Assembly: GCA_963989385.1 (NCBI GenBank)
Contig: OZ022510.1
Span: 36,213,448-36,277,447, forward strand
Origin: Ctena decussata
Lineage: Eukaryota > Mollusca > Bivalvia > Lucinida > Lucinidae
Reading direction: 5' to 3'
DNA: 64,000 nucleotides
Shown here: positions 6,469-49,700 of the stretch, piece after piece
How the letters are laid out: every line of letters begins with the position of its first letter
Numbering within the stretch: position 1 is the stretch's first letter
Program-made: the position numbers and the translations under genes
The notes under the pieces: model-generated
The model's input: the letters and a program-made list of their open reading frames with translations, nothing else
Told to the model about the DNA's origin: nothing
Databases searched by the model: none

Positions 6469-8272
6469 ACCAGAGGACCATTGGTCCTGTAGCTCACCTG
6501 AGTCCATTCATCCTTAGCACTCAAGAGTAAGAAACACTGAAGTAAGTTGTACAATTCGGCCTAATTTCAACTTTGACTGAGTTGTTATGCTTGTCCTAGT
6601 AAAAATTAGCAAGTTTGATGAAGTTACAATAAAAAAAAACATGCTTGTAAAACTTTTTGCCTAAATATTGCAGTAACACAGAAATAAATGCCAATTTGCA
6701 CTTTTCCCAATACAAGTCTATAGAAACTTTAAAATGCCATAGTAATGAAACCATGTGGGCAACAATAATAAAAAACAATATTTACGTAGGGGCTAATGTC
6801 ATGAACATGTATGCAAAGAATCAGCTTCATCCCCTTATATGGTTTTTGAGGAAAAGATTTTTAAATATTTTTTTCAAAAATATTTCCTTAATATTGCCAT
6901 GGCAACAAATCAAATTCGGCAATTTGGACAAAATTAAAAGGAATCATAGAGGACTACTCAAGCAACATTTCTGTAGATAAAAATCCAAAAATAACTGCAG
7001 GGTGATAGCAAAAACGGCAGCTTTCCATTTTTCCCATCATATTTCAATGGAAACTATAAGTTGTCATACCAACCTATCCGCTGAAGCAATTGCCATAAAA
7101 AACAGTAATTCTATAGAGGCTTGTACAAAGATCTGTTCTGTAAAGTTTGAGCTTTATCGGCCACATAGTTTCTGCAAAAATGATATTTTAATATTTTTTT
7201 CTATTTTTAACCATTCGGTTGCAATGGCAATCAGCCAAATTGTGCAATTTACATAAATTTCATGTGGTTGATATAGGACTACTCAAGGAACATTTCTGTA
7301 AAAGTTTTGTCAAAATATCTGCAGTCACATAGCAATAAATGCAAATTTTCAATTTTCCCATTATAAGTCAATGGCAACTTTAAGTTGCCATGGCAACCAA
7401 ACTACTGGAGCAATTGCCAAAAAAAATAGTATTTTTATAGATGGTAGTACCTAGATCCTTTCTGTGAAGTTTGAGCTTTATTGGTTGTATAGTCTCTGAG
7501 GAGATGATTTTGGAATATCTTTTCTATTTTTAACCATTCGGTTGCCATGGCAACCAGCCTAATTGTGCAATTTACATAAAGTTCATGTGGTTTATAGAGG
7601 ACTACTCAAGGAACATTTCTGTAAAAGTTTTGTCAAAATATCTGCAGTGACATAGCAATAAATGCAAATTTTCAATTTTCCCATTATAAGTCAATGGCAA
7701 CTTTAAGTTGCCATAGCAACCAAACTGCAGGAGCAACTGCCAAGAAAAACAGTATTTTTATAGAGGGTAGTACCTAGATCCTTTCTGTGAAGTTTGAGCT
7801 TTATTGGTTGTATAGTTTCTGAGGAGATGATTTTTGAATATCTTTTCTATTTCTAACCTTTCGGTTGCCATGGCAACCAGCCTAATTGTGCAATTTACAT
7901 AAATTTCATGTGGTTGATAGAGGACTACTCAAGGAACATTTCTGTAAAAGTTTTGTCAAAATATCTGCAGTGACATAGCAATAAATGCAAATTTTCAATT
8001 TTTCCCATACAAGTCAATGGAAACTTTAAGTTGCCATAGCAACCAAAGTTCTGAAGCAATTTGGATAAAAAACAGTATTATTGGTTCCCCCTGCCTATAG
8101 ATGCTATAAATGAAATTTGGTAACAATGGGCTTTGTAGTTTCAGAGGAGATGTCTTTTGAAAATATTGACGGACGACGGACGGACGGACGGACGGACGGA
8201 CGGACGACGGACGACGGATGCCTGCCTATACTATAAGCTCACCTGTGAGCCTTCGGCTCAGGTGAGCTAAAA
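6469..8272 (+). mobile_element. Helentron-like element A
   Basis: The 5' end is a hairpin, AGGACCA-T-TGGTCCT, followed by GTAGCTCACCTGAG. The 3' end carries the inverted motif GCTCAGGTGAGCTAAAA in a hairpin with a cttcg loop. The core has about four tandem units of roughly 300 bases around 'ggttgccatggcaacc' and 'tactcaaggaacatttctgt'. A (GGAC)n tract lies at 8168..8218 just before the terminal hairpin. It has no transposase and is inserted in the 5626..9490 element. Confidence 0.65.
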
Positions 8273-9174
8273 AGCATCGTAAACGACTGCGTAATACCCC
8301 GCCACTGCAAACCAATACCCCGTCTTCTATCTTTTATACATTTTTTTTTATCATGACGTCAACCTCATATTACCTAGATAATGTGTTGCAAGTTTCAGGA
8401 AAATCCTGTTAATCTTTGATTTTATACAGAATTTTTTCATAATTTTATACATGTATATAGCTCTGGGGCAGGGGCAGGTAACCTATGTGGACTTAATACT
8501 ACTTCTTACAGAAAGCTTATGTTATTTTAATCATTTCTATGAAATTTCATCAAGATATACCGAAAATCTGATTTTATATTGATTTTTTCATGATTTCATA
8601 CATGTATACAGCATGTGTCAGGGGCAGATAACCACTGGGGGACAAAATTTTGATCAAGACATAAAGCTTATATCAATATGATAAATTGTTACAAGTATCA
8701 GAAAAATCCCTTTCGACTCTAATTTTATACATTTTTTTTCATTACTTCATACATGTATATAGCCCTAGGGCAGGGGAAGATAATCCAGGTGGACAAAATT
8801 CTGCTTATTACTGAAAGCTTATGTTACTTCGATCATTTCTGTGAAATTTCATCAAGATATTTCAAAGTGTAAAAGAACTACAGACCAAAAACTGTTTTTA
8901 AGACCATGAAAAGGGCAATAACTCCATAAGAAGACATCGAAATTTGCCCATTAACAATCCCAACCGAGATCTTCCCAAGACCAATGCACATGCCATGTAT
9001 GAATAAAATCCGTTAATAAATACTCAAGTTATCGAACGGAAACAAAGTGCTCACGGACGGACGGACGGACGGACGGACGACCGGACGGACGGACGTACGT
9101 ACGACGGACGGACAGACACACGGACAGCCAGCGGGAAAACATAATACCCCGCCACTAACGTGTGGCGGGGTATA
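8273..9174 (+). mobile_element. Helentron-like element H, copy 1
   Basis: It starts gcatcgtaaacgactgcgta, then ataccccgccac. It ends ataccccgccac-taacgt-gtggcggggtat, a perfect terminal hairpin. The core consists of units of about 170 bases around 'acatgtatatagc' and 'ggggcaggggcagataac'. An (ACGG)n tract lies at about 9054..9113. A second, larger copy of the family is at 27545..31214. Confidence 0.65.
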
Positions 9175-9490
9175 CAAAGGGTTTGAATTATACAGAGATC
9201 TTAAAAACTTTAACGCAAAACTTTAACATGAAAAGTCAAAGTCCGTGACCTTGACCTCTAGGTCACAGGCATGGGTAGGGGTGGTATAGAATAAAACTTT
9301 GGACCATTATCTATCACCATGCCAAATATAAACCTAATCCATCAAAGGGTTTGGATTATATAAGATCTTAAAAACTTTAACGCAAAACTTTAACGCAAAT
9401 GTTAACTTACGGACGGACGGACGGACGGACGAACGGACATCGGACGAAAGCTATATACCCCTTGGCATACTTCGTATGCCAGGGGTATAA

Positions 9491-10215: not shown

Positions 10216-10604
10216 CTTTTAACCATAACCACAGAATACAAGCTCAAGAGAAGATGCAATCTGCTGCTGCTGCTGCAATCCATCAATTCTCTGACATGCC
10301 TAGATGCAAAAAAATACCATCTTCTAGCAGTATTATACACAACCATTCATACTGTTTACATGATACATATAAAGTTACATAATTCTAGTTTTCTTTGTGA
10401 ATTACTCCCAGTTAAGCAATTAATATATTTAACCTAGATCTGCAGTGCAGTAATTAATGGGGGGTTTAGTTACAGAATGTGAACTACAGTAAATATCCAA
10501 AATATTAGCACTTTATCAAATCCTGACCAATAAAATCCTGACAAATTTTTGTAATCAAATTAAATTTCGATTCAGCTGATTTTACCATTTTGGTGCAGTG
10601 TGAT
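10216..10604. other. Unassigned DNA
   Basis: AT-rich stretch with a short ctg run near 10261. I see no gene or repeat signature. Confidence 0.4.
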
Positions 10605-10682: not shown

Positions 10683-10981
10683 ACTTATGTCCCAACATTT
10701 AGGAGAACTCAAGCTTGCATTAGCTGCCATTTCTTATCAGATCTATGCAACAAGTTGGTGAAAGGTTAAACTCCACCGATGCAAATGATGCTATGTATGC
10801 ATCCCTGCATATGAATCAGCGTGAAATTGGCCAACTAGACAAGAATTCCATGGAAGAAAGTGTCTCGCCTGTCAAAGCATTGTCATAAAACACAGCTAAA
10901 CCAGAAAAGTCAGAAAAAGATTTAATGTTGCTGACAACACAGGATGCCAGAAAAGTAATGCCTATGTCTTGCTGCAAGACA

Positions 10982-11130
10982 ACAAGATCTGTCTGCATAC
11001 AGGTTAGCTCGCCTGATAGTGCCTTGCTGACATTACATTAAACATCTTAATGTAAAACTTTCACATCTTGCTACTGCCGCCACGGATAGTGCAACGGCTC
11101 TTCCTGCATTTTGTGCAGGTAAGCTAAAAA
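10982..11130 (+). mobile_element. Compact Helentron-like element E
   Basis: This 149-base element starts ACAAGATCTGTCTGCATACAG (hairpin CTGT/ACAG), then TTAGCTCGCCTGA. It ends GCAGGTAAGCTAAAAA after a hairpin, ctgcattttgtgcag. The core resembles the element at 47038..47200 (tgccgccacggatagtgcaa, cggctctt), so both belong to the small-core branch. Confidence 0.65.
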
Positions 11131-12731: not shown

Positions 12732-12774
12732 AATTCAGAGGAAGCAACTCTGCTATTTTCATTTTTGCCTCTCT

Positions 12775-13960: not shown

Positions 13961-14325
13961 AATGATAAGCAGAAGGAGGCTTATACTCTCTTACACAATA
14001 CAACTAGTCATACTAAATTGCAAATCCTAGCTGTGGAGGTTCCTGAGAAATCTGATTGTAAAAAAAAAAATGTTTACATACACACACACAAATATATACG
14101 AACACTAAAAACCTATATACCCCTTTATATACTCAGTATACAGGGGGAAAAATATGGTAGAAGGAATAAATCATATACTAAATGGTACAATGGGTAGTCT
14201 TTTCTTTCAGTATCAGTTTCCTCTGTATTGGCAGCATTTTAAAGTGGCGATTTTCTTCTTTGTTTTTCAATCAGTATCACCAAAACAAACTGGCCGCCAA
14301 ATATAATTGTTTTACAGTAATAGAT

Positions 14326-26023: not shown

Positions 26024-26068
<45 letters not shown>
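25866..26068. repeat. Low-complexity block: poly-G, direct repeat, poly-C, (CA)n
   Basis: A G run of over 20 bases (25871-25899), two copies of ttcatatggccaccaaaa, a C run (25997-26010) and a (CA)n microsatellite (26029-26067). Open frames here are low-complexity artefacts. Confidence 0.85.
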
Positions 26069-26069
<1 letters not shown>

Positions 26070-27223
26070 TTATGACCTTGTGTTGACCTTGACCTTTTTT
26101 ACGACTTTTTATGCTAGAACATAAGATTTCATGGAAAGTTTTTAAGATTTAGGCCTAAAAATTGGTATATACAGTCATCTTAATGAGTACATGAAGATTT
26201 ATGAGTACAAGACGTCAAGGTCATTCTTTGACCTTTGACCCAGAACTGGCATATTTTGACAATTTCAAACAGTCTCCTCAAAATCCACTGGGCCGATTGT
26301 AACCAAATTTCATATAGACCCTCCAAGGGTTGAGGGAATGAAAATTTGTTCAAACAGTCCAGGTCACATGTCCAACATGGCCGCCACGCCCATACATGGT
26401 AAAAACCTTTAAAAAATCTTCTACTCCAGAACCAATTGATCGATGGCCTTGAAACTTGTTATATAGCATTGGGTACTCCAGTACTATCAAGATTGTTGAA
26501 AATGATGACATTGGGTTGACCTTGACCATTTTATGGAAAGGTCAAATATGGGAAAATGCTAGAACATAAGATTTCATGGAAAGTTTTAAAGATTTAGGCC
26601 TAAAAATTGGTATATACAGTCATCTTAATGTGTACATGAAGATTTATTAGTACAGGAGGTCAAGGTCATTATTATTTGACTTTTGACCCAGAACTCTCAT
26701 TTTGACAATATCAAACAATCTCCGCAAACGCCACTGGACCAACTGAAACTAAATTTCATATAGAGCCTCCAAGGGTTGAGGGTATGAAAATTTGTTCAAA
26801 CTTCCAGGTCACATGACCAACATGTCCTCCGTGACCATATATGGTAAAAACCTTTAAAGATCTCCAGAACCAACTGACCGACGGCCTTGCAACTTAGTAT
26901 GTAGCATTGGGTACTCAAGTACTATCAAGATTTTTCAAATTATGACCTTGGGTTGACCTTGACCTTTTTTATGGAAGGGTCAAATATGGGAAAATGCTAG
27001 AACAGAAGATTTCATGTGAAGTTTTGAAGATTTTGGCCTAAAAATTGGTATATAGTCGTCTTAATGAGGTCATGAAGAATTATGAGTACAAGAGCTAGCT
27101 GGTCAGCGTCATTCTTTGACTTTTGACCCAAGACCCATATTTTGACTATTTCAGACATAAGAAAAAGCCACTTTGCCAATTGCTCAGGTGAGCGATTCAG
27201 GAGGGTCTGATGGCCCTCTTGTT
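26069..27223 (-). mobile_element. Helentron-like element F, truncated
   Basis: Read on the minus strand it begins ACAAGAGGGCCATCAGACCC (hairpin GAGGG/CCCTC), then TCGCTCACCTGAGC. This is the start seen in elements A and B. Core units of about 430 bases carry ttgaccttgaccttttttat and agtactatcaagatt. The 3' end is lost in the (CA)n block on the left. Confidence 0.6.
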
Positions 27224-27544: not shown

Positions 27545-28144
27545 TAAAAGCATCGTAAACAACTGCGTAATACCCCGCAGCTGCAAAACTTTCATATTCT
27601 TTTTTTTTTTTTTTTTTTTTTTACATGATTTCATACTCGTATATAGCCCCAGGACTGGGGCAGATTATTAACCTCCTTGTGATAACATTTTAACCATCAC
27701 TTGAAGCTATTATTGCTTTGACCATTTGTTACATGTTTCATCCCTTTCAGTTCTGATTTTATACATATTTTTTCGTGATTTGTTACATATATATAGCGCT
27801 GTGTCAGGGGCATATAGTCCCTCGGAAAAAAAAATGAGCATAAAAAGGAAGTTATATATTTTTGATAATTTACTACAAGTTCTAGAAAATCTCATTCAAC
27901 TCTGATTTTATATATATATTTTTTTCATGTTTTTATACATGTATATATGCCCGTGGCAGGGGCAGATAACCCTCTTGGACTAAATTCGGGTTGTAAAATA
28001 AAGCTAATGTTACTTATATCATTTCTGTGAAATTTCATAAAGATATACAAAAAAACTGATTTTAAATGGATTGTTTTCATAATTTTATACATGTATATAG
28101 CCCTGTGCAAGGGGCAGATAACCCCTGGGGACAAAATTTTGATC

Positions 28145-28735
28145 ATGTCAGAAACTCACCATAACTCACCATACCCGACATCAGTGTAAGTCATTCGACT
28201 TGTATCGATGCTTCTCGATATTGTCTATATTCTCCCGTTGGGCGGCCAGCTCGATAACATGCAGCTTCAAACTTATATGGTTGCCCGTGCCAGTGTTTGT
28301 TTAAACAGGTTTTAAAGGCATAGAGGGAGAAACAAGTTTAGTGGCACGTCTTTGTACATTCTCGATTATTATTTTGTCTTTTTTTGTAAGACGGTGACCA
28401 CACAGGAGTGGCGTATTCTAGGTGCGGCCTTACAATTGATTTGAAAAGGTTTAAAAACATTTCCTGGTCTATATAGGTAAATGCCCTGAAGATAATGCCC
28501 AAATTTTTGTTTGCTGTATTAACTTTAGATGTTATATGGTCTCTGAAATTTAAATTCTGATCAATAATAACACCTAAGTCCTTTTCACTTTCTACTTTTT
28601 CTATTTCTACTTCCTCGTTGTTTGTAACCATTGTGTATTTAGTTCAGTGTCGTGTTTACCAATATGTAAACTGTGGCACTTTGAAATATTAAAAAAAACA
28701 TTCTCCAGATATTGGCCCAGCTGACAGCTTATATT
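28145..28735 (-). pseudogene. LINE RT C-terminal fragment in element H
   Basis: A minus-strand frame reads ESEKDLGVIIDQNLNFRDH, then NKNLGIIFRAFTYIDQEMF and [15 protein letters not shown]. The sequence corresponds closely to the 20390-20650 fragment, so both derive from one LINE family. Only about 97 codons remain open; catalytic motifs are absent. Confidence 0.7.
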
Positions 28736-28877
28736 GTTTCGATAAGCTGTAGCAAGTTTCAGGAAATTTACTTTCAACCCTGATTTTATACAGAATTTTT
28801 CATGATAAAAATACATGTATATAGCCCCGGGGCAGGGGCAGATAACCCTGGAGGACAAAATTCTGCTAACAACAAAA

Positions 28878-30892
28878 ACAAGAGGACCATTAGGTCCTGA
28901 TCGCTCCCCTGGGCCCTGAGACTTTAATGTGATATGAACTTTTTGGACATTTGTTTTCGCTATGAATTTACCGAACTTTTGTAGACATAAAATAACAGTG
29001 CCGAAATGGTGATGAGCAAAACATCCAGACCTAATAGTTTCTGAGAAAAAGAACTTTAAATATTCAACACAAGTGCATGACCATTGGCCAAGGTCACTAA
29101 ATAACCTTGACCTCTTGAATTCAAAGAAATTGAGGTCAATTGCATTTTCATATCATAGAGTCTAATAGCAACAGAAAAATGCACTTTTACAGCTTTCTCC
29201 TTCAAAGCCTGAGGGGATAAATTAGACCTTTCCATATAAATGGTCAAGGTCAACTCAGGATCATCAGTTATATACTAGTAAACTTTGCAGTCTTAGATGC
29301 TGCATACCAACTTGCAATCGGCCCCGTGGTTCTGGAGAAGAATTTTTTTATGGTTTTAACCATATAGGGGCATGGCCGTCATCTTAGTCATGTGATGTGG
29401 ACATAATGTATAAACTTTCTTTCCTACTTTGCCTGAGGGGTGCATATGAAATGTAATTGAAATTGGCCCAGACATTTCAGAGGAGGTCCTTTGAAAATAA
29501 TGACAGATACGTGACCTTTGGCCACAGTCTCTTAATGACCTTGACCTCTAGAATTCATACAGATTGTACTTGAATGCATTTCCATATCACAGAGCACAAT
29601 AGAAACAGAAAAATCCACTTTTTCAGTTTTTCCCATTCAAAAGCCTAAGGGACCAAATTTGACCTTACCATTAAATAGATCAAGGTCAACCCAGGGCCAT
29701 CATTTATATACACTTTGTAGTACTAGAGTCCTAGATGCTACATACCAAGTTTCAAGGCAATCGGCCCAGTGGTTCTGGAGAAGATTTTTTAACGTTTTTA
29801 CCATATATGGGCATGGCGGCCATCTTGGTCATGTGACCAAATGTATAAACTTTCTTTCCCCCTTTGCCTGAAGATTCGATATGAAATCTAATTGAAATTG
29901 GCTCAGTAGTTTCGGAGAGAAGTCCTTTGAAAATGTTGAAAGACAACGGACAGGTGACCTTTGGCCAAGGTCATTAGATGACCTTGACCTCTAGAACTTC
30001 ATAGGTGTTGAATTTGAATGCATTTCCATATAACATAGCACAATAGCAACATAAAAATGTACTTTTCAGTTTTTCCCATTCAAAAGCCTAAGGGACCAAA
30101 TTTGACCTTGCCATAAAATAGGTCAAGGTCAAGTAAGGGTCTTCATTTATATAAACTTTGTAGTGCTAGAGTCCTAGATGCTACATACCAAGTTTCAAGG
30201 CAATCGGCCCAGTGGTTCTGGAGAAGTAATCTTATTAGGTTTTTACCTTATAGGGGCTTGGTGGCTATCTTGGTCATGTGACCTGGACCAAATATATATA
30301 CTTTCTTTCCCCCTCTGCCTGGAGGCTGCATATGAAGTTTAATTGAAATTGGTCCAGTAGTTTCAGAGAAGACCTTTGAAAATGTTGACCGACAACAGAC
30401 TGTGACCTTTGGCCACAGTCACTTAATGACCTTGACCTCTAGAACTTCATAGGAGTTGAATTTGAATGCATTTCCATATTACATAGCACAACAGCACCAT
30501 AAAAACGTACTTTTTCAGTTTTTCCCATTCCAAAGCCTCAGGGACCAAATTTGACCTTGCCATTAAATAGGTCAAGGTCAAGTCAGGGTCTTCATTTATA
30601 TAAACTTTGTAGTACTAGTGTCCCAGATGCTACATACCAAGTTTCAAGGCAATAGGCCCAGTGATTCTGGAGAAGAAGATTTTTTTTAGGTTTTTACCAT
30701 ATCTGGGCATGGCAGCCATCTTGGTCATGTGACCTGGACCAAATATATAAACTTTCTTTCCCTCCTTGTCTAGAGGCTGCATATGAAGTTTAATTGAAAT
30801 TGGCCCAGTAGTTTCAGAGAAGTCCTTTGAAAATGTTGACAACAGACGCCGGAGACTACCATCCTATAAGCTCGGCTCAGGGAAGCTAAAAA
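28878..30892 (+). mobile_element. Helentron-like element B
   Basis: It starts ACAAGAGGACCATTAGGTCC (hairpin AGGACC/GGTCCT), then GATCGCTCCCCTGGG, and ends CTCGGCTCAGGGAAGCTAAAA. Tandem units of about 450 bases contain gaccttgacctctagaactt, ccatatatgggcatggc and atgtgacctggacca. It is inserted in the H copy, whose core resumes at about 30893. Confidence 0.65.
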
Positions 30893-31214
30893 TATATTAT
30901 TTCCATCATTTCTGTGAAATTTCATCATGATATTTCAAAGTGTAAAGGAATAACAGACTAAAAACCACTTTTGCAACACAGACAAGGGCAATAACTCTGT
31001 CACAAGATATCGAAATTTTCCCAACAATCCCAACAGAGATATTCCCCAAGGCCAATTCATATGCCAAGTTCAAAGAAGATCAGTCAATACTCAAGTTATC
31101 GAACGGAAACAAAGTGGTCACGGACGGATGGACAGCCAGCGGGAAAACATAATACCCAGCCACTATCGTGTGGGGCATATTACCCCGCCAATAACGTGTG
31201 GCGGGGTATAAAAA

Positions 31215-33755: not shown

Positions 33756-35455
33756 TACCGTAATCGACCTTATTAGCGCCCTGTGCGCTTAACTTTTTCA
33801 AAATGGTGGCAAATACTTGTAGTAAACTTTCTTTCTTATTAGCGCACATTTTAATAGGTTATTTTATATTGAAAGGAACAAATTTAAAGGTAAAGCATCA
33901 GAGAAAAGCTGCTTATAGGCAGCTTTTCTCTGATGCTTAACCTTTAAATTCATAGAGAAGCTTTAGAAATAACAAGAGCTGTCGCCTGACAGCATAGCTC
34001 GCCTGAATTGGTGCTTGCCCATCACTCAGCCGCTATGGTGGTGTGGACTGCTATGCATAAAACTTCATGCAAGCATGTCCATAATGAAAACACATTTATA
34101 AACAAAAGCTATCTCAGAAATAAGTCTTAAAATAAAATTAGAATAAAACAAATGAAATGAAATTTCAAAGTCCATGAGCTTGAGGTTAAAAAAAAAAGAC
34201 GGGTGGGGGGGTGGGGGGGGGGGGGGGCTGTGATGCATAAAACTTCATGCAAGCATGTCCATAATTAAAACACAAAAGCTATCTCAGAAATAAGTCTTAA
34301 AATAAAATTAAACTAAAAAAAATGAAATGAAATTTCAAAGTCCATGAGCTTGAGGTAAAAAAACTGACGGTTAGGGGGGGGGGGGGGGGGGGGGGGCACT
34401 AGTATGTATCAAAACCCTAAACCATTATCTAACATCAGCCCAAGTATTAGTATCAACTGAGTCCATCATCGTGGCACTGTGAAATTATGTCTTCATAAAT
34501 ATAAAACTTTAACCAAAATCTTTAAAACAAAATTCTAAGTCGATGACCTTGACTTCAAGGTCACCCAGTGGGGTAAGTATAAGGTGTTTTGTAAAAACTC
34601 AAAAAAGAGTCTAACATCAGTTCAAGTATAAACTGTATCTCTGCAAAGCATTATGAATCAGTATGCAATTACAAAACTTTAAAAAAGACGAAAATTTCCT
34701 AAGTCCCTGACCTTGACATCAAGATCACTGAGCGGGGTTGGGGTAGTACTCTGTAGATCTAACTACGGTGCAAATATAAAAGGAATTCATCTCTGGGTTC
34801 AGGAGATATGTGTCTTTAAAAAACTTTAACCAAAACATCCAATCAATAAAAAGACAATATTCTAAGTCCATGACCTTGACATCAAGGTCACAGAGGGGGG
34901 TGGGGGTAGTACCTTTGAAAACTTTAGACCAATATCTAACTTTAGTGCAAGTATCAAAGGAATCCATCCATGGGTTCATGAGATATTGGGCTTTATAAAA
35001 CTTTAACCAAAACATCCAGTCCAAAAAAACACCAATTTTCTAAGTCCATGACCTTGACATCAAGGTCACAAAGTGGGGTGGGGGTGGTACCCTGTTAAAC
35101 CTTAGACCAATATCTAGCTACAGTGCAAGTATCAAAAGAATCCATCCATGGGTAAGGAGATATAGGTCTTTAAAAAACTTTAACCAAAACATCCAGTTCG
35201 AACGCCGACGCGGACGCTGACGCTGACGCGGACGCGGACGCGGACGCCGACGCCGTGGTGACAACAATAGCTCTTCCTGAACTTTCGTTCAGGCGAGCTA
35301 AAAAATGATATATTCTGTTGCATTTTCAGCTCTTGTAAACAAGCAAACAAAGGAATAAACCAGTAAAAAATATGTGCATTTATAGTCCTATGTCTCACAA
35401 ATTGCCATGGTGTGCGCTTATAGGGGCATGTGCGCTAATTAGGAAGAATACGGTA
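33756..35455. mobile_element. MITE with TACCGTAAT ends, copy 2, interrupted
   Basis: Same ends and central hairpin (33890-33950) as 33043..33425, split by Helentron-like element C (33972..35305). The right arm of the inverted duplication shows the empty site (tagtatactgtcattctttt against the interrupted left arm), so this MITE arrived after the duplication. Confidence 0.8.
33972..35305 (+). mobile_element. Helentron-like element C
   Basis: It starts ACAAGAGCTGTCGCCTGACA (hairpin CTGTC/GACAG), then TAGCTCGCCTGAA. It ends TTCAGGCGAGCTAAAAA, a perfect 12-base inverted subterminal match (AGCTCGCCTGAA). Tandem units of about 170 bases include aagtccatgaccttgacatc, aaggtcac, some with expanded G runs (about 34201-34227 and 34375-34396). 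A (GACGCG)n-like tract (35199-35250) takes the place of (ACGG)n. MITE copy 1 supplies the empty site. Confidence 0.75.
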
Positions 35456-35698
35456 TTGTCATTCTTTTATGCTTCTGATTGACATTAACCTGTTAACAGA
35501 TGCATGATTATCTAACACTCAGACTAAAACAGTATGCTTGACTGCTAAAAAGAGGTAATATCTCAAACAGCCACCATATACACAAATGTATAGCATACGA
35601 TACATTCAACTTTCTCAAAATGTGTGAATAACTTCTAAAGTACAAGCCCTACAAACCTTATTTTGAGCTCTCTAGTAAGTGAATTTGGACAAAGAATC

Positions 35699-35756
35699 CA
35701 AATCTGGATTTTTTTTTTTTTTTTTTGGAGGTGGGGGGGGGGGGGGGGGGGGGGCC
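35699..35756. repeat. Poly-T followed by poly-G
   Basis: A run of T (about 35709-35726) passes through gaggt into a long G run (35731-35754). The right arm has the mirror tract at 39290-39346 (poly-C then poly-A), so the tract predates the inverted duplication. Confidence 0.85.
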
Positions 35757-35989
35757 CAGCGTGCGGGAATGTGGAGGGGTCAGAGAGAGATAGGAACATG
35801 GATAAGATATCACAGCATGATCATCAATATTCTAAAAGGTACACGTTTATTCAAATTCTGGAGCTGGCCAGGGTTATACAAATATAGAGCAGAGACTCAA
35901 ACAGCAGCTCAAACTACCAAAGAGAATTACTCACAGAGTATAAAAGCAAGTTATCATTCATGTATGAGACAAATAGTCATGACCTGTTC

Positions 35990-36890
35990 TGCATATCTGT
36001 GAAGTATCATGAAAATATTTCAAAAGGTATTCAAGCTAAGGAGCGGACACCTAAAATCATCAAAGGGAAATAACTCAAAAAGTAAAAAAGCAAGAGTTGT
36101 CATTTTTGTTTGTGACACATCTACATATCTGTGAAGTATCATGAAAATATTCCAAAAGGTATTTAAGTTATAGAGCAGACACGAAATCACACCTAAAACC
36201 ATCAAGGGGAAATAACTCAAAAAGTAAGAGAGCAGGAGTTGTCATCCTTGTTCGCGACACATCGTCATGACCTGTTCTACATATCTGTGAAGTATCACGA
36301 AAATATTCCAAAAGGTATAGAGCGGACACGAAATCACACCCAAAATGATCAAGGGGAAATAACTCAAAAAGTAAGTAAGCAAGAGTTGCCATTCTTGTTC
36401 GCGACACACCATCATGACCTGTTCTACATATCTGTGAAGTATCATGAGAATATTCCAAAGGGTATTCTAGTTATAGAGCGGACACGAATCTGCCAAAAAA
36501 TCACACCTAAAACTATCAAGGGGAAATAACTCAAAAAGTAAGACAGCAAGAGTTGTCATTCTTGTTCGCGACACATCGTCATGACCTGTTCTACATTTCT
36601 GTGAAGTATCATGAAAATATTCCAAAGGCTATTCAAGTTACAGAGCGGACACGAATCTGCCAAAAAATCACCAAAGGGGAGATAATTCAAAAAGTACAAT
36701 GGCAAGAGTTACCATTCTTGTACGCGACATGGCATCATGACCTGTTCTACACAACTGTGAAGTATCATGAAAATATTCCAAAGGGTATTCAAGATATAGA
36801 GCGGACAAGAAAGTGTTTACAGACGGACGGACGGACGGACGCCAGGCTCATCGCTATATCCCCCGAACCTTTCTGTCGGGGGATAAAAAT
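35990..36890 (+). mobile_element. Helentron-like element J (tandem core and terminal hairpin)
   Basis: About five tandem units of 150-180 bases (gtgaagtatcatgaaaatat, aaggggaaataactcaaaaa, ttcttgttcgcgacacat) lead to an (ACGG)n tract (36821-36840). The terminal hairpin is tatcccccgaacc/gtcggggata. Its 5' limit is unclear. The right-arm counterpart is 38106..39260. Confidence 0.65.
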
Positions 36891-37446: not shown

Positions 37447-38104
37447 GGCTTCAAATACTCATGAAAACCATCTCTACCAAAATGACACAGAAAATTTCAC
37501 ACATACCAAGAACATGAGGGGTCATACATCACTTCAGTAACATACTGAAATTTCTATTTGGAACATGAATTTAAAGCTCAGAAGAGACTCTTTGGTGTAA
37601 TATGAAGGATACTTATTTACATATAAAATGCACCATTAAACTTTTTATTGTTTAATGACCACTCCTTGTACTAGCATACAGCCCATAGCAAAATTTCCCT
37701 ACAGATGCCCAAAAAGACTGCCTATGGGTATAAATGAACAATCAAACATGATGATATTTCACTTTTTATTAGAAAAGTAATATTTGTCATGATAATATCT
37801 GTGGAACTGAGGTATGAGACATTTATTTACAATGATATTATGAACATGATTATCCCACTTCTTGGTCAATTGTTTAAATAAGTATTATGAAAGGTCCAGC
37901 TCTTGGAAAGGAGAAAATAATTGTATGGGCACGTCTTACATTTTTCAGTGATTTTTACAAAGGGGAATAACTTTTCTAACTTCCACTTTGCTTGTCTCTT
38001 CCCGTACATGGTGTGTGACCGGGGGTGAATAGTAAATGCTCTGATCAGACTGCTAATGCACAGGTTGGTCTAAATCTCTGCCAGAAACAAGGGCTTTTAG
38101 CACC
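37447..38104. other. Unassigned spacer of the inverted duplication
   Basis: No domain, RNA or repeat recognised. Confidence 0.4.
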
Positions 38105-38105
38105 A

Positions 38106-39260
38106 TTTTTATCCCCCGACCGAAAGGTTCGGGGGATATAGCGATGAGCCTGGCGTCCGTCCGTCCGTCCGTCCGTCTGTCCGTCCGTCCGTCCGTCTGT
38201 CCGTCCGTAAACATTTTCTTGTCCGCTCCATATCTTGAATGCCGTTTGGAATATTTTCATAATACTTCACAGTTATGTAGAACATGTCATGACGATGTGT
38301 CACGTGCAAGAATGGTAACTCTTGCTTTTGTAATTTTTGAGTTATCTCCCCTTTGGTGAATTTTTGGCAGATTCGTGTCCGCTCTGTAACTTGAATACCC
38401 TTTGGAATATTTTCATGATACTTCACAGATATGTAGAGCAGGTCATGATGATGTGTCACGAACAAGAATGACAACTCTTGCTTTCTTACTATTTGAGTTA
38501 TTTCCCCTTGATGGTTTTAGGTGTAAATTCGTGTCCGCTCTATAACTTGAATACCTTTTGAAATATTTTCATGATACTTCACAGATATGTAGAACAGGTC
38601 ATGACGATGTGTCGCGAACAAGAATGACAACTCTTGCTTTCTTACTTTTTGAGTTATTTCCCCTTGATGATTTTAGGTGTAAATTCGTGTTTGCTCTATA
38701 ACTTGACCTTTTGAAATATTTTTATGATACTTCACAGATATGTAGATCAGGTCATGACGATGTGTCGCGAACAAGAATGACAACTCTTGCTTTCTTACTG
38801 TTTGAGTTATTTCACCTTGATGGTTTTAGGTGTAAATTTGTGTCCGCTCTATAACTTGAATACCTTTTGGAATATTTTCATGATACTTCACAGATATGTA
38901 GAACAGGTCATGACGATGTGTCGCGAACAAGAATGACAACTCTTGCTTTCTTACTTTTTGAGTTATTTCCCCTTGATGGTTTTAGGTGTAATTTCGTGTC
39001 CGCTCCATAACTTGAATACCCTTTGGAATATTTTCATGATACTTCAGTTACGTAGAACAGGTCATGCTGATATGTCGCGAACAAGAATGACAACTCTTTC
39101 TTTCTAAGTTTTTGAGTTATTTCCCCTTGATGGTTTTAGATGTGATTTCGTGTCCGCTCCATAACATGAATACCCTTTGAAATATTTTTATGATACTTCA
39201 CAGATATGGAGATCAGATCATGACAGTTTGTCTCATACAAGAATGACAACTATTGCTTTC
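38106..39260 (-). mobile_element. Helentron-like element K, mirror of J
   Basis: It carries a hairpin at the left edge (tcccccgaccgaaaggttcg), a (CCGT)n tract (38157-38210), then about six tandem units (cttcacagatatgtagaaca, ggtcatgacgatgtgtcgcg). Same family as 35990..36890, opposite strand. Confidence 0.65.
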
Positions 39261-39285
39261 ATACTTTTCCGAGCCCTCCAGTCCC

Positions 39286-39347
39286 CCTCCGCCCCCCCCC
39301 CCCCCCCCCCCCCCCCCTCCCCCCCCCCCCAAAAAAAAAAAAAAAAT
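39286..39347. repeat. Poly-C followed by poly-A
   Basis: Mirror of the tract at 35699..35756; C runs of 10 to over 20 bases end in about 15 A. Confidence 0.85.
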
Positions 39348-39739
39348 TTCAGATTTGGATTCTTTGTCCAAATTCACTTACTAGAGAGCTCAAAATTAGA
39401 TTTGTAGGGCTTGTACTTTAGAAGTTACTCACACATTTTGAAATGTTGAATGTATCATATGCAATACATTGTCTACATGGTTGCTATTTGAGATTTTATC
39501 TCTTTTTAGCAATCTGGCGTACTGTTTTGGTCTGAGTGTTAGATAATCATGCATCTGTTAAACAGATATTGTCAAGAAGGAGCATAAAAGAATGACAGTA
39601 TACTATTTATATGTGTTTTGAAGCACACTGTGTTTACCAAAGCGCAAGGGGCCTTCGGTCGGGGGATTTGCCATCTCCTCTGATGGCTATTTTTATGTAT
39701 TGTGGAAGAACTGCTGTTAGCTGGACATTTTCTCCTTTT

Positions 39740-39935
39740 CCAATGCTCCAGGTTAGTGGGTAACAGGGATAATTTTTCGTATTTCTCCATAAAATATACA
39801 TCATGATCCCTCATTAGAACTGTCTCAGTGAGACAGTTCTAATGAGGGATCACAATGTATAATTTCTTAGAGAAATGATAAAAAAAATTCCCAGAATTAC
39901 TTTTAAAACCCTGTTTTATCTGTAGACCTGCTTTT
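39740..39935. repeat. Fold-back element, family FB-2
   Basis: Central stem gaactgtctcagtgagacagttc flanked by atccctcatta/taatgagggat and outer arms (aatgctccaggttag on the left). The right arm is diverged beyond 39890. Confidence 0.65.
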
Positions 39936-40430: not shown

Positions 40431-40579
40431 ACAAGAATTCCGCGGAATGCTATGTCGCACCTGCACTGTACAAATCTGAACGCCAGGGTTGACGTAAATG
40501 TGAACGGACTGACAGACGGAATGACGGACCGAAAACCGGACACCTATATCGCACCTTACTAAAGCAGGTGCCACAAAAA
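40431..40579 (+). mobile_element. Compact Helentron-like element G
   Basis: It starts ACAAGAATTCCGCGGAATGC (perfect palindrome ATTCCGCGGAAT), then TGTCGCACCTGC, and ends GCAGGTGCCACAAAAA. The subterminal motif and its inverse match with one mismatch. A degenerate ACGG-type tract (acggactgacagacggaatg) lies before the end. 149 bases, no coding. Confidence 0.65.
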
Positions 40580-41012: not shown

Positions 41013-41917
41013 CACTTAAACGGTAGCTAAGTGTCTAAGCTACCTCCATGCCGACAGTGAAAACTCTGATCAGAATGGGCAGATGAGTCAGAGCATGGCA
41101 CACATGCCATTTTAGGGCTGGCTAATCGAATCCAAAATGGTAATCGATTATCGGTCTGGTCGTTTCGATAATTAACCGATTAGTAATCCCTGAACGAGGC
41201 AAATTGAAAATGGGTATGTTTAAAAGCTTCGGTGGCACAGATTTGGTTAAAACGTTTTGACAAGGTACACTAACAAACAATAAAGTTGATAACTATTCAA
41301 ATTATCAATTACCTTTGATTAAATCTTGTCTTCTGATATGCCAATCCACGCTAATTGGCTTCCTAATTGGCAGCTGATTGGCAACAAGCGACCATCTTGT
41401 TCTATTCAGATTCCGATAAGCCACCTTCGGTAGTTCGTAGTACCTACTTTCAGTACATCTACCGGGACAATATCTATCAATTTGCGTGTTAATAAGGACC
41501 TAAATTCTAATCATTTTATTAAAAAGACTGGATTAAAATTATAAGCGAGGCTACTGAACTAATAAAATGTTCCGGGTTTTGCGCAAAACATTAACTTGGT
41601 CGTCTGAACTGACCAGAACACAACGGGTTTATGCTATTCGTTACAACCTATTCACCGTATCACAAATACTCTTCAACGTTTCCGGTTGGTCTCCGAGACT
41701 TCCGTTTTCCTTTGGAAGGAAATAAGAAGTGAATAACGAGAGAAATTTCTCATATTTTATTGCAGAAAGTGACAGGACATTTTCAGCAGGTAATCGATTA
41801 CTTAATTTCGTCGATCGATAATTGTTTTCGTTTTGCTTATCGACCAATTAACCGATATTTCGATTAATCGTGCCAGCCCTATGCCATTTTGTTGGTTTTT
41901 GAGGCGTTGCAGCTCAC
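41013..41917. repeat. Fold-back element, family FB-1, split by a hAT
   Basis: Only one half and the inner stem survive (cggtagctaagtgtctaagc through agcatggcacacatgccatt), resuming at 41882 with tgccattttgttggtttttg and ending at cagctca. The hAT element at 41113..41881 sits in the atgccactttgttgg segment typical of the family. Confidence 0.65.
41113..41881. mobile_element. Non-autonomous hAT element
   Basis: Perfect 8-bp target duplication TGCCATTT (41105..41112 and 41882..41889); inverted ends TAGGGCTGGC and GCCAGCCCTA. Subterminal regions are rich in aatcgatta/gattaatcg repeats. No transposase remains in the 769 bases. Other FB-1 copies supply the empty site. Confidence 0.9.
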
Positions 41918-41986
41918 CTGTCTCACATTCTGCTACTCACAGGTAAGACAAAACTCTGCCCTCATCAGCGGCCAAGATTTTCAACA

Positions 41987-42182
41987 AAGCTCCAGATAAG
42001 ATTGGGTAACAGGAATTATTTAGGCATAATTTTCCATAAAAACCTATCTTGTGACCCCTCATATGAACCATCGTGCCGACTCAGTTCTAATGAGGGGTCA
42101 CAAGATGTTTTCGTTGAGAAATAAGAAAGAAAAAAAAACATCTTTGAATTATTCTCAATTCCCCCTTCTTATCTGGAGCTCT
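41987..42182. repeat. Fold-back element, family FB-2
   Basis: Outer ends agctccagataag and cttatctggagct; inner arms tgtgacccctcat/atgaggggtcacaa; loop region gaaccatcgtgccgactcagttc. A complete copy. Confidence 0.75.
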
Positions 42183-43122: not shown

Positions 43123-43133
43123 TTATTGAGCCA

Positions 43134-43372: not shown

Positions 43373-43757
43373 TCACCGACGGTACTTTTCGTATTTGTCA
43401 TACTTCTCATACTTGTCGTATTTCTCATATTTATCGTACTTTTCGTATCTATCTCTGCTTGGCGACAAATGATGTCCATTTCGATTTTTCCGAGAATGCC
43501 TTTCAGGGGAGTAATACTTGTCCATTTTCTCTTTCTCTTTGTAATGCTTTTTATGACTAGTTTTATACTCTGGGGATAGAGACACTGAATGGCTAGGGCT
43601 ATGAGATCTTTGTTTCCTCTTTCGAGATTTGTGTATGTCTTTATTATTGTATTTGTCTGGAGAGTATCTGTTCTTTTTGAGCTTTCTTGCGGGACTGTGA
43701 TGTTTCCTTTTCTTTGGCACTGGACTGTAACTTCTACTTGAACGGGAATGAGAAGAC
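43373..43757 (-). CDS. CCNL1: Cyclin L last exon (basic tail, stop)
   Basis: Encodes [19 protein letters not shown], many SP sites ([29 protein letters not shown]) and a closing tandem repeat of YEKYDK before RR and TGA (43373..43375). Acceptor TATATTACAG. SP dipeptides are potential proline-directed phosphosites. The YEKYDK run stands where vertebrate proteins keep RS/RH-rich sequence. Confidence 0.92.
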
Positions 43758-46700
43758 CTGTAATATAAATCAATATAATCCTAAGGACTGGGAGAAAAAC
43801 ATCAGGTGCCTGTTTCACTAAACATCTTAGCTTAAGACTTTCATAAGTTCCATACAGTTTATGAAAATCTTAGGGTTAAGATGTTCAGTGGAATGGGCAC
43901 CAGGACTGAATATCCATAACATTTCTTAGACCGATCTTTCACCTTTTTAAAATTCTAGTTACAGGTAAAATCCATGCCTTACATCTATACACCTTCTTCG
44001 TTCAACCTTCCAAACACAACACTTTCCTCATAATTTGCCAAAACAATGAATACAAGATCTAGCTGTCAGACAATTTCTGTGAAATATCCACATATACAAA
44101 GCAATACAGCTCTTCTCTGAAAAATTCAAGTAGGCGGTTCTTAGGTCAGAGAAGCGGCTGTAGCGTAGTGGACAACACTCCAGACTACTAATCCAGGGGT
44201 CGCAAGATTGATCCTCCGCTTCTCCAGTCTTTCGGATGAGACTTTAAACTGAGGTCCTGTCTCCATATGACCTCGTTGTTGGTGGGACGTTAACCGGAGT
44301 TCACTCACTCACTCTTAGGTCAGAGCAAAACATATGAGCTGCACCAAGACAATACCAACATAGTGGCATGTTTGCAAAGCCAAGACTAAGTTCCCTGGGC
44401 ATCCACCCAGTCTAATCAGACTTTACTGTGCACTTAAATGATAGCTAAGGGTCTGAGCTAGCTCCATGCAGACAGCAACAACTCTGATCAGACTGGGTGG
44501 ATGCCCAGGCTGGTCTGAGTCTTTGCTGGGCACACATGCCACTTTGTTGGTTTAGTCCTGTCGCGGTTCATATACTTTTTATAAAGATTATAGAACATCA
44601 ATTCATAAGACAGAAAAACAAAAAGGAACTTTGTTTTCTATTTAACTCTCTCCTTAACTCTCACACTTTTCATTATCGCAGCCTCAAACTATTCCTATTC
44701 CACATGAAATCAGAGTTATGTATAAAGCTAAAACCAACCAAGTGGCATGGGCGCCCAGCAGGATTTGGATCAGTCTTAGCATCTGCCCAGGCTGATCAGA
44801 GTCTTTACTGTCCACATGGAGATAGCTTGGACCCTTAGCTACCGCCGATCTGAGTCTTTGCATTGCGCACATGCCTCTTTGTAGGTTTTGTCGTTTGATG
44901 GCTCACAGATTCCTCTCATGATCCACATCTTTCTTACAAGTCATTTTTTCTCACCAAACCATGGTGATTTTTCATCTGACTCCGACCAATTCTGTAACAT
45001 CATATTTTAGGGATTTTTGTATTTCTAGCCAAAGTTTCTTTATATCATAAAAGAAAGACTAACCGAGATCTACTTCTTGATCGACTTCTAGAGAAACCAT
45101 TTTTCCTTTTTTTGGACACATAGTTCTCTTTGTAACTGAAAAGATTAAGGCACAATGTCATTGTTCCATGTCAAAGAGAATTCTGAGTCAGTTTCAACTA
45201 CTAGTAACTCTAAATATAAACATCAGCCGAGGCTCCTAATTAGAACTACCTCTCTGAAAGAGTTTTAATGAGGGAGCCACAACTTTACTTTAACATAGAA
45301 AGAAGTTATCCTAAAATTTCACCTATTAAATTTGAACTGAAATGTAACACCTACACAGTCATACATATGCACCTTAAATACGATAAAGTTCAAAGCTTGA
45401 CAATGTTAACTCTAACTCTTCAAGAAATTGCTGCAACTCATTTATCAATGAGTGATTGTGACGAATTTTAGTGGGAATGACTAAAAGAATTATTCTAAGT
45501 TATAGTTAAACACTCCCTTTCTCTTTAAAAGTCTGTCTCAACCAATGACCCCAAATTCTGAGACCTAAGTGCATTAGCAAATCTGGGACTTAAGTGCATT
45601 TGCGAATAGTGTAGACCCAATCACACTTTGAGAGATTACTTTGAATACTTACTTTGAATCTCTATCAGAGTGTTTATCTTTTTCTCCCTCCTTCTTTATC
45701 CTCAGAATACTTCCCAGGAGCGTAGGATTAGGGCTCACATTTTTAGGAGAGTCTGAAATTATGAAATACAGAATATTACTATAATGTAAGTCTACAAATA
45801 CAAGTTGTGGTATATCTGTATTATCCACAGAATACTTTAGAGAAGTATGGGATTAGGACCCCTCTTCCTAAGTGGTGGTGTGTTATAGCTTTACATCCAC
45901 AGTCAACAGCTATGGTCATGTTGGGACAATCAGTTATCCTAACCTCACTATTCCTGGGCAGGCTTGAGACCTCCTAAGTGGTTAAACAATACTAAGTGCA
46001 CATACCTTTGCCAGTAGCTGATAGCTGCCCGATTATGATTTTGGGAATAAATACATGCATGTATTTAAACCTAATTTACATTGTTCAAACAGAAAGATAC
46101 ATGCATACACTTAAAACTCTGCCTACTTTACAAAGGTTTCACGGAAAGCTCAATGAGCATTAATTTCAAGAAGGCATATATGTTGGCATTCTGTGGTAAA
46201 GCACTATCATAGCTTTAGATATTGGAGTATTTGGTGATAATAAGTGACAACTTTTGTTAAATCTGCATAAAAACGTATGTTGTGACCCCTCATCTGAACC
46301 GTCTTGATGAGACGGTTCAGATGAGTGGTCACAACAAATGGTTTAAGTGGGAAATAAGGAAAATTATCCTTCAATTATCATCAAATACTCCCTCTTACCT
46401 TGAGCTCCGAATACTGAAGCAACTCTTAAAAGCTCTAGGTATCAAGTTACATTTTTATCTCTCACCAAGAGAGTCAAGAGAAGAGAGTAAACTTACTTTG
46501 TCTTGAGGTAGAGTTTGGTGTGCCCCTTTCTGATGCTGCCATTTCTTTCGCTCTCTTCTTAGCTTCTATCTGCAAATTCCTAGCTACGTTCACCTTCTTC
46601 TCCAACTGCTCTGCATTGGGCTGAAGAGAAATAAGAGCTCATATTAAGGGGGAAGGGATCTTGTAACCAGGGAACACTTAAAGCATCATTGGATATTGTC

Positions 46701-49700
46701 ACCAAAACAGAGCTTAAGCAGGAAATTTGATGCAATGTTTGTATACTTATTTTTTTTGAAAATTTAGTTGTAACTAAGCCACTCTGAAGCTGTAGTCCGT
46801 TTTACTCTTCTAAATTTACTTGTCTCTGCAAATTCTTAGCCGTGTTCACAGGCTTCAACTGTTCTGCATTAGGCTGAATTAAGAGTCACAAGCGTGAATT
46901 ACATTTTTATGCTGCAGGCCTTGACAAGTGCTTCACATTTCATTACTGACTGCATAATGGCTGTAAACAGATTCAATGAACTGGATCTGCTTTCATTTCT
47001 TCGTTGAGTTCCTTGCTTCCAACTGATGCAACATTAAACAAGACCTGTCACAGGGATAGGATAGCTCGCCTGACAGTGCCTTGCCCATCACATAAAAAAA
47101 TTAAACGTAAAACTTTAACATTTTACTAATGCCGCCGCCGCCACCAACGCCGTGGGTAGTGCAATAGCTCTTCCTGAACTTCGTTCAGGCGAGCTAAAAA
47201 GAATTTGATTCAGATGGACTTTTAATTATCCTGGTCTCTGAATCATCAAGATTCTACTATACAAGCCTTTTACATTTCCCACCAAAGAAAGACCATAATA
47301 CTCACTTTTTTCCTTGCATAGAGCCGAAGTATAGTTAGACAGATTTCCTGTATTTCCATTTCATCCACGTCAAATAATTCATACCATGGAGGGCTGTTAG
47401 GCAGGGGAACCTAAAATGAAAAATTTCTATTAACTCATAAAGGCAAATTCATCTGAGTTGTGGCACAATTTTTTTTTGTAATTTCTAAACTGCAGACGAC
47501 ATAATGGTCAAATATTCAAATATGACAGAGTTGTTATATGAAGACATACAAGAAATGGTCACAACATTTTTCACTGGATTTCTGCTAAATGTATAAAGAT
47601 TCACCAAGATCTGCTGAAATCTTTGTAGAATACAAGAATTCCATGGAATACTGAGTTTCAACTGTTTGCAACATGTTTCAAAGCAACCCCCTGTACTGCT
47701 CAAAGAGTAAAACTTATGTCAACTTTTCCATTGATCACAGACAAAAACTACAGAGCTCCGGTAAAGTGGGTTGTGAAGATAACTTTAAGGCATTTTTCCC
47801 ATTTTCAGTAACATAAATTTTGACCCCCTCATTAGAACCATCTCAATGAGACAGCACATTATCACAATATTTATTTTCGTGGATAAAAAAGTAGCCCTAA
47901 ATTATATTACCCCTTCTGACCTGGTGCACTGACACTATAACATACCTGCAGTTGCCTAGCTGCCAAGTAAATACAAGCACAAGCTATAGTCTCAGGGTGC
48001 CATCTGACAAACACATCTGTGCGGAAGCTGTCATTCATATAGTTCCTGAAAGAAAAAGGAAATTTAAATCATCTCTACCACAGGAAAAGCTGAAATAAGA
48101 AAGGCATGAACTGAAAATACGCATTTCTTCAAGCATCCAGCCAAGATTTCTCATGGTTTGGCATTTGGCTTTCAAATCAATTTTTCCATTAGTTATTAGA
48201 CTCAAATGCACCTTTATCCAATTTTCTAGTGATTTTCAATGAGCTAGTAAATTCACATTTCTGTATTTCACACCTGAGAGTGTATTCTGTGTATGTGTGC
48301 ACTTTCAACTCTGCCATTTCCATTTCTGCATCCCTGACCCTTTTCAACAGGGGTCCAACTGTAGGAACCAAGTCTTTCCTTAAAGAGTAGACCCTTTTTC
48401 CTGAAGGAGTTTGTTATCTAGCAGTGCTCCAGATAAGAAAGGCTAACAGAGATAATTTTGGGATAATTATCCATATTTCTCCACAAAAACATATTTTGTG
48501 ACCATCATTAGAACCATCTCGTCGAGACGGTTCTAATGAGGGGTCACAACATATGTTTTCATTGAGAAATAAGAAAAATTGTTTTTGAATTATCCTCAAT
48601 ACCCCCTCTTATCTGGAGCTCTGATCTAGGGAAGCAAGCAGTCACAGAAGTTATTTCTCTTCGAACAAAATGCCAGAAAAATCTGGAGATGTACCCATAC
48701 AAATTGAGGGTAGCATAATCTATGACAAGAGACGCAAATATGTCCAGGTCAAGAGTGTAATTTTCTTTTGTAAATGCGTATTTTCAGTTTCTATAAAATA
48801 GCAATTTTCACAATCTGTTTGAACACATTTACTTCAGCAAAAAGACAAATGAACCATACCAAAACGAGAGACAATTTTCATGTATCAAAACACACAATTT
48901 AGTTTAGAAGCTTAATAATTTTGGCCAACTAAACCATTGAAGAAATAAGAAAATTGATGCTCACCTTTTGTAAAGTACATCAAATATAGAGCAAACTTCA
49001 ACCTATGCAAAATACAAATAAAATCAAAAGAAATTATTAAAGTAGTGCACCCTTTGACCAAAGCCTTCTAGTCCCAGACAGTTATCCTCTAGTTCTTTTC
49101 AGTTTAGTGTATTTCATCATTGCATTTGTTATTTCACTGTATCCTCCGAATATCTGAATAATGATACAAATACATCCTGTCCAAGCACTAATCTTCTTCA
49201 AGGTTTATCACATGACATCGCTGAATTATTCTGTTCGTTGTCCTGATAGTTGGATCTGAAATGTCTGAACAAAGTATGAGTAACCCTTACTCAGTCCTCC
49301 CTTTAACCTTTGGTTTATTTTTCATCAATATTGCCCAAAATTTTGTAACTCATGTTACTTGGGTATATTCACCAATATTTAAAACACAGGTAAATCTGGA
49401 ATGCTTCCAAATTAAGACTCTTTTAACCAGACACAGATGGCCATTTCAAACCTACATTCAGTCTAACTTTGAACTTATAACTTTTTACTGCTCTCATGTT
49501 TTTTTTATGATTATTCCAGTTGTTTTGTACAAAAGCATGCACATTACAACATATGCATGGATGTATTATGTTAAAAACTTGGTTATAACAAATGACCAAT
49601 TGAAACCCATGAGGACACATCCAAATCCTGACCAGCATGACTTCGTTGACTGCCATTTCCACCACTTCTGACTCCATGTTAACATTCTTTTCTCGACGCA

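What the first reader, a model, noticed from the sequence alone, without database searches (positions are those of the whole stretch)
6469..47200. A shared terminal grammar links seven or more otherwise unrelated Helentron-like insertions
Elements at 6469, 10982, 26069 (minus), 28878, 33972, 40431 and 47038 begin with ACAAGA or close to it. A hairpin follows whose sequence changes while pairing is kept: AGGACCA/TGGTCCT, AGGACC/GGTCCT, GAGGG/CCCTC, CTGTC/GACAG, CCTG/CAGG, CTGT/ACAG, ATTCCG/CGGAAT. Next is a motif of the type CTCNCCTGA that reappears inverted at the 3' end before CTAAAA (or CACAAAA). Cores are unrelated and 100 bases to 2 kb long. Conserved structure with changing sequence suggests selection for recognition of the ends by one mobilising machinery. 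Subterminal inverted repeats, a 3' hairpin and (ACGG)n tracts are known for HINE/pearl elements; the 5' hairpin covariation looks less described.
Basis: partly seen in the sequence, partly recalled or inferred. Interest (0 to 1): 0.75.

Follow-up and report, generated by a model that had tools for sequence, protein, structure and literature searches.

The report
Ordinary Helentron-type HINE elements, read backwards

Summary
The shared end grammar is real. Chosen by inner motif and tail, 8 of 8 termini (the seven listed plus one at 10838-10880) carry a stem of at least 4 bp by the tail, against 16 of 97 other tail sites (p 2.6e-6) and 1 of 11 chance look-alikes from viral contigs. On the other strand they match the published HINE/DINE-1/Cg_HINE plan: T-rich flank, 5' subTIR with inverted repeat, GTCC-type microsatellite (in some), central repeats, 3' subTIR, 3' palindrome, tail. 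The "less described 5' hairpin" is the known 3' stem-loop; [quoted passage not shown] Claims that shrink: 26069 is no element end; E3/E4 and E2/E7 are related inside; the stems reduce to about three kindred groups; only 4 of 8 named stems appear in DNA folds, while 5 of 6 opposite ends fold strongly. A second class with TATACCCC-type subTIRs has the same plan and nests with the first. Genome-wide copies and an autonomous partner could not be searched. New members of a known kind; modest interest.

The parts
6469..8273 (-). E1, HINE-like element, 323-bp central repeats; 3' palindrome 6474-6488, 5' subTIR/IR hairpin about 8236-8268, GACG/TCCG microsatellite 8168-8218
   Evidence: 5' hairpin z -6.7; tail is TCTGGT, not TCTTGT
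10982..11130 (-). E2, short HINE-like element; 3' stem CTGT/ACAG 10989-11002 (weak)
   Evidence: stem P 0.17; 5' hairpin z -3.4
10838..10880 (-). E8, additional 3' terminus (subTIR CAGGCGAGAC, palindrome TTCCATGGAA, tail TCTTGT); I saw no 5' end by eye
   Evidence: stem P 0.13
26068..27222 (+). E3, HINE-like element with 3' end only (subTIR about 27181-27197, palindrome about 27199-27218); 5' side lost at (CA)21
   Evidence: 3' end z -3.3
28878..30892 (-). E4, HINE-like element, 443-bp central repeats related to E3; 3' palindrome 28883-28898; 5' inverted repeat eroded
   Evidence: 5' end z +0.3
33972..35304 (-). E5, HINE-like element, 177-bp repeats, ACGCGG microsatellite 35202-35253; 3' palindrome 33978-33993; 5' hairpin about 35266-35300
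   Evidence: 5' hairpin z -5.8; near-empty paralogous site
40431..40577 (-). E6, short HINE-like element with variant subTIR GCACCTGC; palindrome 40437-40448
   Evidence: 5' hairpin z -2.8
47038..47200 (-). E7, short HINE-like element related to E2; stem CCTGT/ACAGG 47044-47054; 5' hairpin about 47162-47196
   Evidence: 5' hairpin z -4.7
5612..9488 (-). B1, second HINE class (TATACCCC-type subTIR), host of nested E1 and B2; limits by eye
8274..9175 (-). B2, second HINE class; 3' palindrome GCAGTCGT..ACGATGC directly joins E1's 5' T tract; limits by eye
27547..31211 (-). B2', relative of B2, holds nested E4; limits by eye

Best explanation
The seven insertions (plus one further 3' end) are non-autonomous Helentron-associated elements (HINEs, the pearl/Cg_HINE kind), seven of these eight lying on the minus strand. 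Inferred working: a Rep/helicase from an autonomous Helentron elsewhere nicks at the T-flanked 5' end, recognised by the AGCTCRCCTGA subTIR folded with its inverted repeat; a single strand is peeled off through the core; the 3' subTIR followed by a short palindrome and TCTTGT marks the stop, and the strand is joined into a T-rich target. Because the palindrome acts through shape, its letters can change while pairing stays. Shown here: anatomy, pairing beyond chance, nested and near-empty insertion sites. Inferred: every enzymatic step, and that one machine serves all.
For: Order of parts on the minus strand matches Cg_HINE and DINE-1 descriptions. Pairing at 8 of 8 motif-chosen termini against 16 of 97 other tails and 1 of 11 chance look-alikes. 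Arm swap: of 42 swaps only the two between E2 and E7 (same stem) pair fully, the other 40 lie at 0.00-0.40 (own arms pair by construction). Five of six 5' ends fold with z -2.8 to -6.7. E3 and E4, alignable there, show one A-T to G-C exchange on both sides of the stem, beside one one-sided change to T-G (read). Own 5' and 3' subTIRs agree at 13 (E1), 13 (E5), 12 (E7), 10 (E4), 10 (E6) and 9 (E2) of 13. Removing the element leaves a nearly intact repeat unit for E5, E4 and the E1+B2 block, with +3, -4 and +1 bases.
Against: The 3' stems are short, and in 4 of 8 cases not the preferred DNA fold. The arm swap was aligned at the loop edge, so a one-base shift (as between E1 and E4) hides kinship and the swap overstates independence. 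The 5' subTIRs of E2, E4 and E7 fit another element's 3' subTIR one base better than their own. The three extra bases at E5 leave a 2-3 bp target duplication possible there, and the paralogous sites are diverged, so boundaries and the TT target are not fixed. No Walker-type helicase motif and no full Rep motif 2 were seen by pattern in six frames; the one partial match (QFRGIPH, 4197 minus) sits in a 14-residue frame. Membership therefore rests on non-coding anatomy.
Confidence: 0.87

Rival explanations
1. The elements are MITEs moved by a cut-and-paste transposase acting on subterminal inverted repeats; hairpins are by-products of palindromic binding sites.
For: Pearl and DINE-1 were earlier filed as MITEs (passages); inverted subterminal motifs exist; three extra bases at E5 could be a small duplication.
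Against: No duplication at the E4 and E1+B2 sites (-4 and +1 bases); ends are asymmetric, only one side carries the extra palindrome and tail.
Confidence: 0.07
2. The apparent covariation is shared ancestry of a few families plus short chance pairing, without selection on structure.
For: Stems reduce to about three kindred groups, worst-member Fisher p 0.027; E2, E6, E7 and E8 stems absent from the DNA fold.
Against: 8 of 8 against 16 of 97 and 1 of 11; one two-sided exchange between E3 and E4.
Confidence: 0.12
3. The two end classes (CTCRCCTGA and TATACCCC) belong to separate Helentron lineages with separate enzymes rather than one machinery. (Compatible with the best explanation, so the odds are not exclusive.)
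For: Same plan but different subTIRs and tails; they nest in each other.
Against: Nothing here tells enzyme specificity.
Confidence: 0.5

Closest known systems
Cg_HINE elements of Crassostrea gigas (PMC7492417; abstract, sections 7 and 9, and passages read)
   Same: 5' subTIR with adjacent inverted repeat, GTCC-type microsatellite, satellite-like central repeats, 3' subTIR plus palindrome, T-rich target, no duplication reported; unrelated cores combined with flanks
   Different: Their sequences are in supplements not open to me, so identity of subTIRs was not compared
DINE-1/INE-1 of Drosophila (PMC2374699, passages)
   Same: 3' stem-loop with changing sequence and kept pairing, unrelated central repeats, GTCY microsatellite, TT insertion; subTIRs ATACCC-like as in the window's second class
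   Different: Published stems 7-11 nt, here 4-7 bp uninterrupted; first-class subTIR CTCRCCTGA differs
HINE-Mo and Helentrons (PMC4067079; abstract, first part of the results, passages)
   Same: subTIRs, 3' palindrome, T-rich sites without modification
   Different: Autonomous partner was found there, not here
Helitron2/FoHeli of Fusarium (PMC5148889, passages)
   Same: Hairpins at both termini in some, asymmetric inverted repeats
   Different: Other terminal sequences; autonomous copies encode Rep-Hel
Pearl/CvA and DTC84 (as described in passages of PMC7492417 and PMC5139131; originals not read)
   Same: Bivalve non-autonomous elements with short tandem arrays
   Different: Terminal sequences not compared

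Membership tests
HINE (non-autonomous Helentron) | Inverted subTIRs near both ends | tested here: met
   9-13 of 13 identities within each of 6 two-ended elements; E3 and E8 have one end only
HINE (non-autonomous Helentron) | Inverted repeat beside the 5' subTIR (DINE-1/Cg_HINE type) | tested here: met
   5 of 6 fold with z -2.8 to -6.7; E4 does not
HINE (non-autonomous Helentron) | 3' palindrome downstream of 3' subTIR | tested here: met
   8 of 8 have stem >=4 against 16 of 97 and 1 of 11; weak singly
HINE (non-autonomous Helentron) | GTCY-type microsatellite on the 5' side | tested here: inconclusive
   Clear in E1, variant GTCCGC in E5, short in E6; not evident in E2, E4, E7; E3 and E8 lack that end
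HINE (non-autonomous Helentron) | Insertion in T-rich/TT site without target duplication | tested here: inconclusive
   Three near-empty paralogous sites, -4, +1 and +3 bases, exact breaks not fixed
HINE (non-autonomous Helentron) | Autonomous Helentron (Rep/helicase/endonuclease) with the same ends | not tested
   Own-genome search did not complete; none seen in the window by motif pattern
Canonical Helitron (Helitron1) | 5' TC and 3' CTRR ends, insertion between A and T | tested here: not met
   Ends are T-rich plus TAGCTC (GTGGCACC in E6) and TCTTGT; the A/T insertion rule was not tested

The most novel reading that the evidence does not exclude
In this genome many unrelated cores, and perhaps both subTIR classes, share interchangeable end modules, so that one Helentron enzyme reads a shape (a stem next to TCTTGT) plus a loose subTIR code, and ends are swapped between elements; E2, E4 and E7, whose 5' subTIR fits another element's 3' end one base better than their own, and E5/E7, with near-identical ends on different cores, would be traces of such swaps.
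Probability: 0.2. Interest if true: 0.5.

Novelty: new member of a known kind. Interest (0 to 1): 0.25.

Why it matters
It settles the orientation of these elements and shows that the supposed new feature is the published 3' stem-loop. What remains useful is one window with two end classes and several stem types, which would make a genome-wide covariation test of the terminator model straightforward.

Tried and rejected
Collection scans for outside copies: a 5'-end pattern in viral contigs and genome contigs, 0 and 0; a 3'-end pattern of the E3 type in genome contigs and viral contigs, 0 and 0; a looser 3' pattern in viral contigs gave 15 stretches, 11 distinct, 1 of 11 with a stem of 4 or more; judged chance and used as a control. 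Some of these 15 can pair otherwise, with the tail itself. Rfam: one tRNA only, at gathering threshold. A covariance model was not built: MAFFT aligns tails and right arms but not left arms, and eight kindred sequences would fit any imposed structure. ACAAGA as a signal of its own was rejected (67 sites). A Helentron protein in the window was sought by motif pattern in six frames: no Walker match; one partial Rep-2 match in a 14-residue frame, judged chance. Pfam was run on 5 of the 23 open frames of 110 or more residues listed; one matched, RNase H. The remnant at 47637 was left out of counts because it was noticed through its palindrome. The palindromes of the second class were not tested against chance. 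Papers holding the end words typed as sequence: 5 of 5 listed, none on transposons by title (listing only).
Full report
What was checked. The seven listed insertions were read on both strands. Six start with ACAAGA on the stated strand and one (6469) with ACCAGA. The minus-strand element given as 26069 has its ACAAGA at 27222; near 26069 it only meets a (CA)21 tract, so that element has one recognisable end.

Orientation. Read on the opposite strand the elements run: T-rich flank, TAGCTCRCCTGA or near it (GTGGCACCTGC in E6) with a nearby inverted repeat, in some a TCCG-type microsatellite, central tandem repeats in the four long ones (323, 443, 445 and 177 bp in E1, E4, E3 and E5), then TCAGGYGAGCKA or near it, a short palindrome and TCTTGT(T). 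This is the published order for Cg_HINE in oyster (PMC7492417 section 7) and for DINE-1 (PMC2374699 passages; PMC4067079). PMC2374699 itself notes that 5' and 3' are arbitrary where there is no open reading frame.

Is the pairing real? Tails TCT[TG]GT were divided by whether a subTIR motif stands 10-36 bases upstream, blind to pairing. Eight have it, and all eight carry a stem of at least 4 bp near the tail; 16 of 97 others do (p 2.6e-6; at 5 bp 6 of 8 against 7 of 97; at 6 bp 3 of 8 against 0 of 97). The motifs were widened to take in E1 and E6, and the first seven sites were picked by a reader who had seen the hairpins; the narrow motif keeps 6 sites, all with a stem. Eleven distinct look-alikes from viral contigs serve as an outside control: 1 of 11 has a stem of 4. 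The eighth site is a further 3' end at 10838-10880. A looser scan gives 20 hits, not beyond shuffles (mean 12.1, maximum 21); the strict scan gives 6 against a mean of 0.10 and a maximum of 1 in 20 shuffles.

Letter shuffles of each interval give P from 0.0017 to 0.17. The sum of stem lengths for the seven listed is 38, against a mean of 18.5 and a maximum of 31 in 5000 shuffles. These figures treat the elements as independent, which they are not: E1, E3 and E4 look kindred, so do E2, E5 and E7, and E6 and E8 (grouped by eye). Over the three groups Fisher's p is 1.1e-4 (best member), 0.0018 (geometric mean) or 0.027 (worst member). The arm-swap table was aligned at the loop edge and hides kinship where the register differs by one base, as between E1 and E4. 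Between E3 and E4, alignable, one pair changes on both sides (A-T to G-C) and one on one side only (C-G to T-G).

How strong are the hairpins? Folded as single-stranded DNA, five of six 5' ends are far more stable than shuffles (z -2.8, -3.4, -4.7, -5.8, -6.7; E4 +0.3). Of eight 3' ends only E3 is (z -3.3); the named stem is in the minimum-energy fold of E1, E3, E4 and E5 only.

Cores. E3 and E4 share blocks of about 190-197 bp at 76.5-82.4%, E2 and E7 are 80% alike over 81 bp, and E1 and E4 share a 57-bp piece at 81%. With 45 bases trimmed from each end, E2 and E7 keep a 30-bp match only. E5 and E7 share 40 bp of end at 97.5% with no core match. E6 gave no match to the others. So end-sharing with different cores is true in part.

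Insertion sites. Removing E5, E4 or the joined block E1+B2 leaves a sequence that aligns to a neighbouring copy of the same repeat with 3 extra, 4 missing and 1 extra bases at the junction. This fits insertion in T-rich DNA without duplication at E4 and E1+B2; at E5 a duplication of 2-3 bases cannot be excluded. The comparison copies are diverged, so break points are not fixed.

A second class. Five further stretches (B1, B2, B2', B3a, B3b) and one more 5' end at 14108-14150 have TATACCCC/TATCCCCC or similar subTIRs with inverted repeat; most carry a TCCG microsatellite, and where the other end was found (B1, B2, B2') a palindrome follows the 3' subTIR (limits by eye, pairing not tested against chance). 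The subTIR resembles the DINE-1 subTIRs ATACCC... in PMC2374699. E1 and B2 stand head to tail inside B1, and E4 lies inside B2'.

Mechanism and limits. The most likely working is rolling-circle transposition by a Helentron enzyme, with the 3' palindrome as terminator; this is taken from the literature and not tested here. No Walker motif and no full Rep motif 2 were found by pattern in the window; one partial match lies in a 14-residue frame. The own-genome search did not complete in eleven tries, and the viral and prokaryote collections hold no copies by the exact patterns used, as one expects for an animal element. The host is probably a bivalve; this is inference from the element types, not a result.

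Novelty. The statement that the stem's sequence changes while structure is kept stands in print since 2008 for DINE-1 (passage), and modular HINEs with unrelated tandem cores since 2020 for oyster. Hairpins at both termini are noted for Helitron2 (PMC5148889 passages). The listings of six paper searches (titles and starts of abstracts, capped lists, open-licence papers only) showed me no account of covariation for bivalve HINEs; that is not proof of absence. PMC7492417 says of its 3' palindromes only that all could form stem and loop. The elements here are new members of a known kind. On rechecking, confidence in the best explanation was lowered from 0.88 to 0.87 for the E5 junction and the register flaw in the arm swap, the MITE rival raised from 0.06 to 0.07 for the E5 junction, and the shared-ancestry rival from 0.10 to 0.12 for the register flaw.

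Noticed in passing
5612-9488, 8274-9175, 27547-31211, about 35980-36890, 38104-39268, 5' end at 14108-14150: Second HINE-like class with TATACCCC/TATCCCCC-type subTIRs, nested with the first class.
   Followed up: partly
6469-9175: E1 and B2 lie head to tail and together sit in one repeat unit of B1, as if the T tract at an element end were a favoured target.
   Followed up: partly
35447-36841 and 38186-39607: Inverted near-copies (pieces up to 95% complementary) that include HINE tandem repeats and flanking sequence.
   Followed up: no
39795-39861, 46276-46338, 48502-48542, also about 42047-42105: Long fold-back hairpins of one family (GTGACCCCTCAT...ATGAGGGGTCAC) whose arms differ between copies while pairing within each copy is mostly kept.
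   Followed up: partly
41908-41953: Lone 5'-type end TTTTGTCTTACCTGTGAG (minus strand) with a nearby inverted repeat, closer to the subTIR of E8 than to its neighbours' (by eye).
   Followed up: no
47632-47660: Tail plus palindrome ATTCCATGGAAT like that of E6/E8 with an eroded subTIR.
   Followed up: no
22240-23016 (minus): RNase H domain (Pfam PF00075, E 7e-15), probably of a non-LTR retrotransposon (that label is inference).
   Followed up: partly
43373-43780 (minus): Arg/Ser-rich open frame resembling an RS-domain exon of a host gene; no Pfam match; identity is a guess.
   Followed up: no
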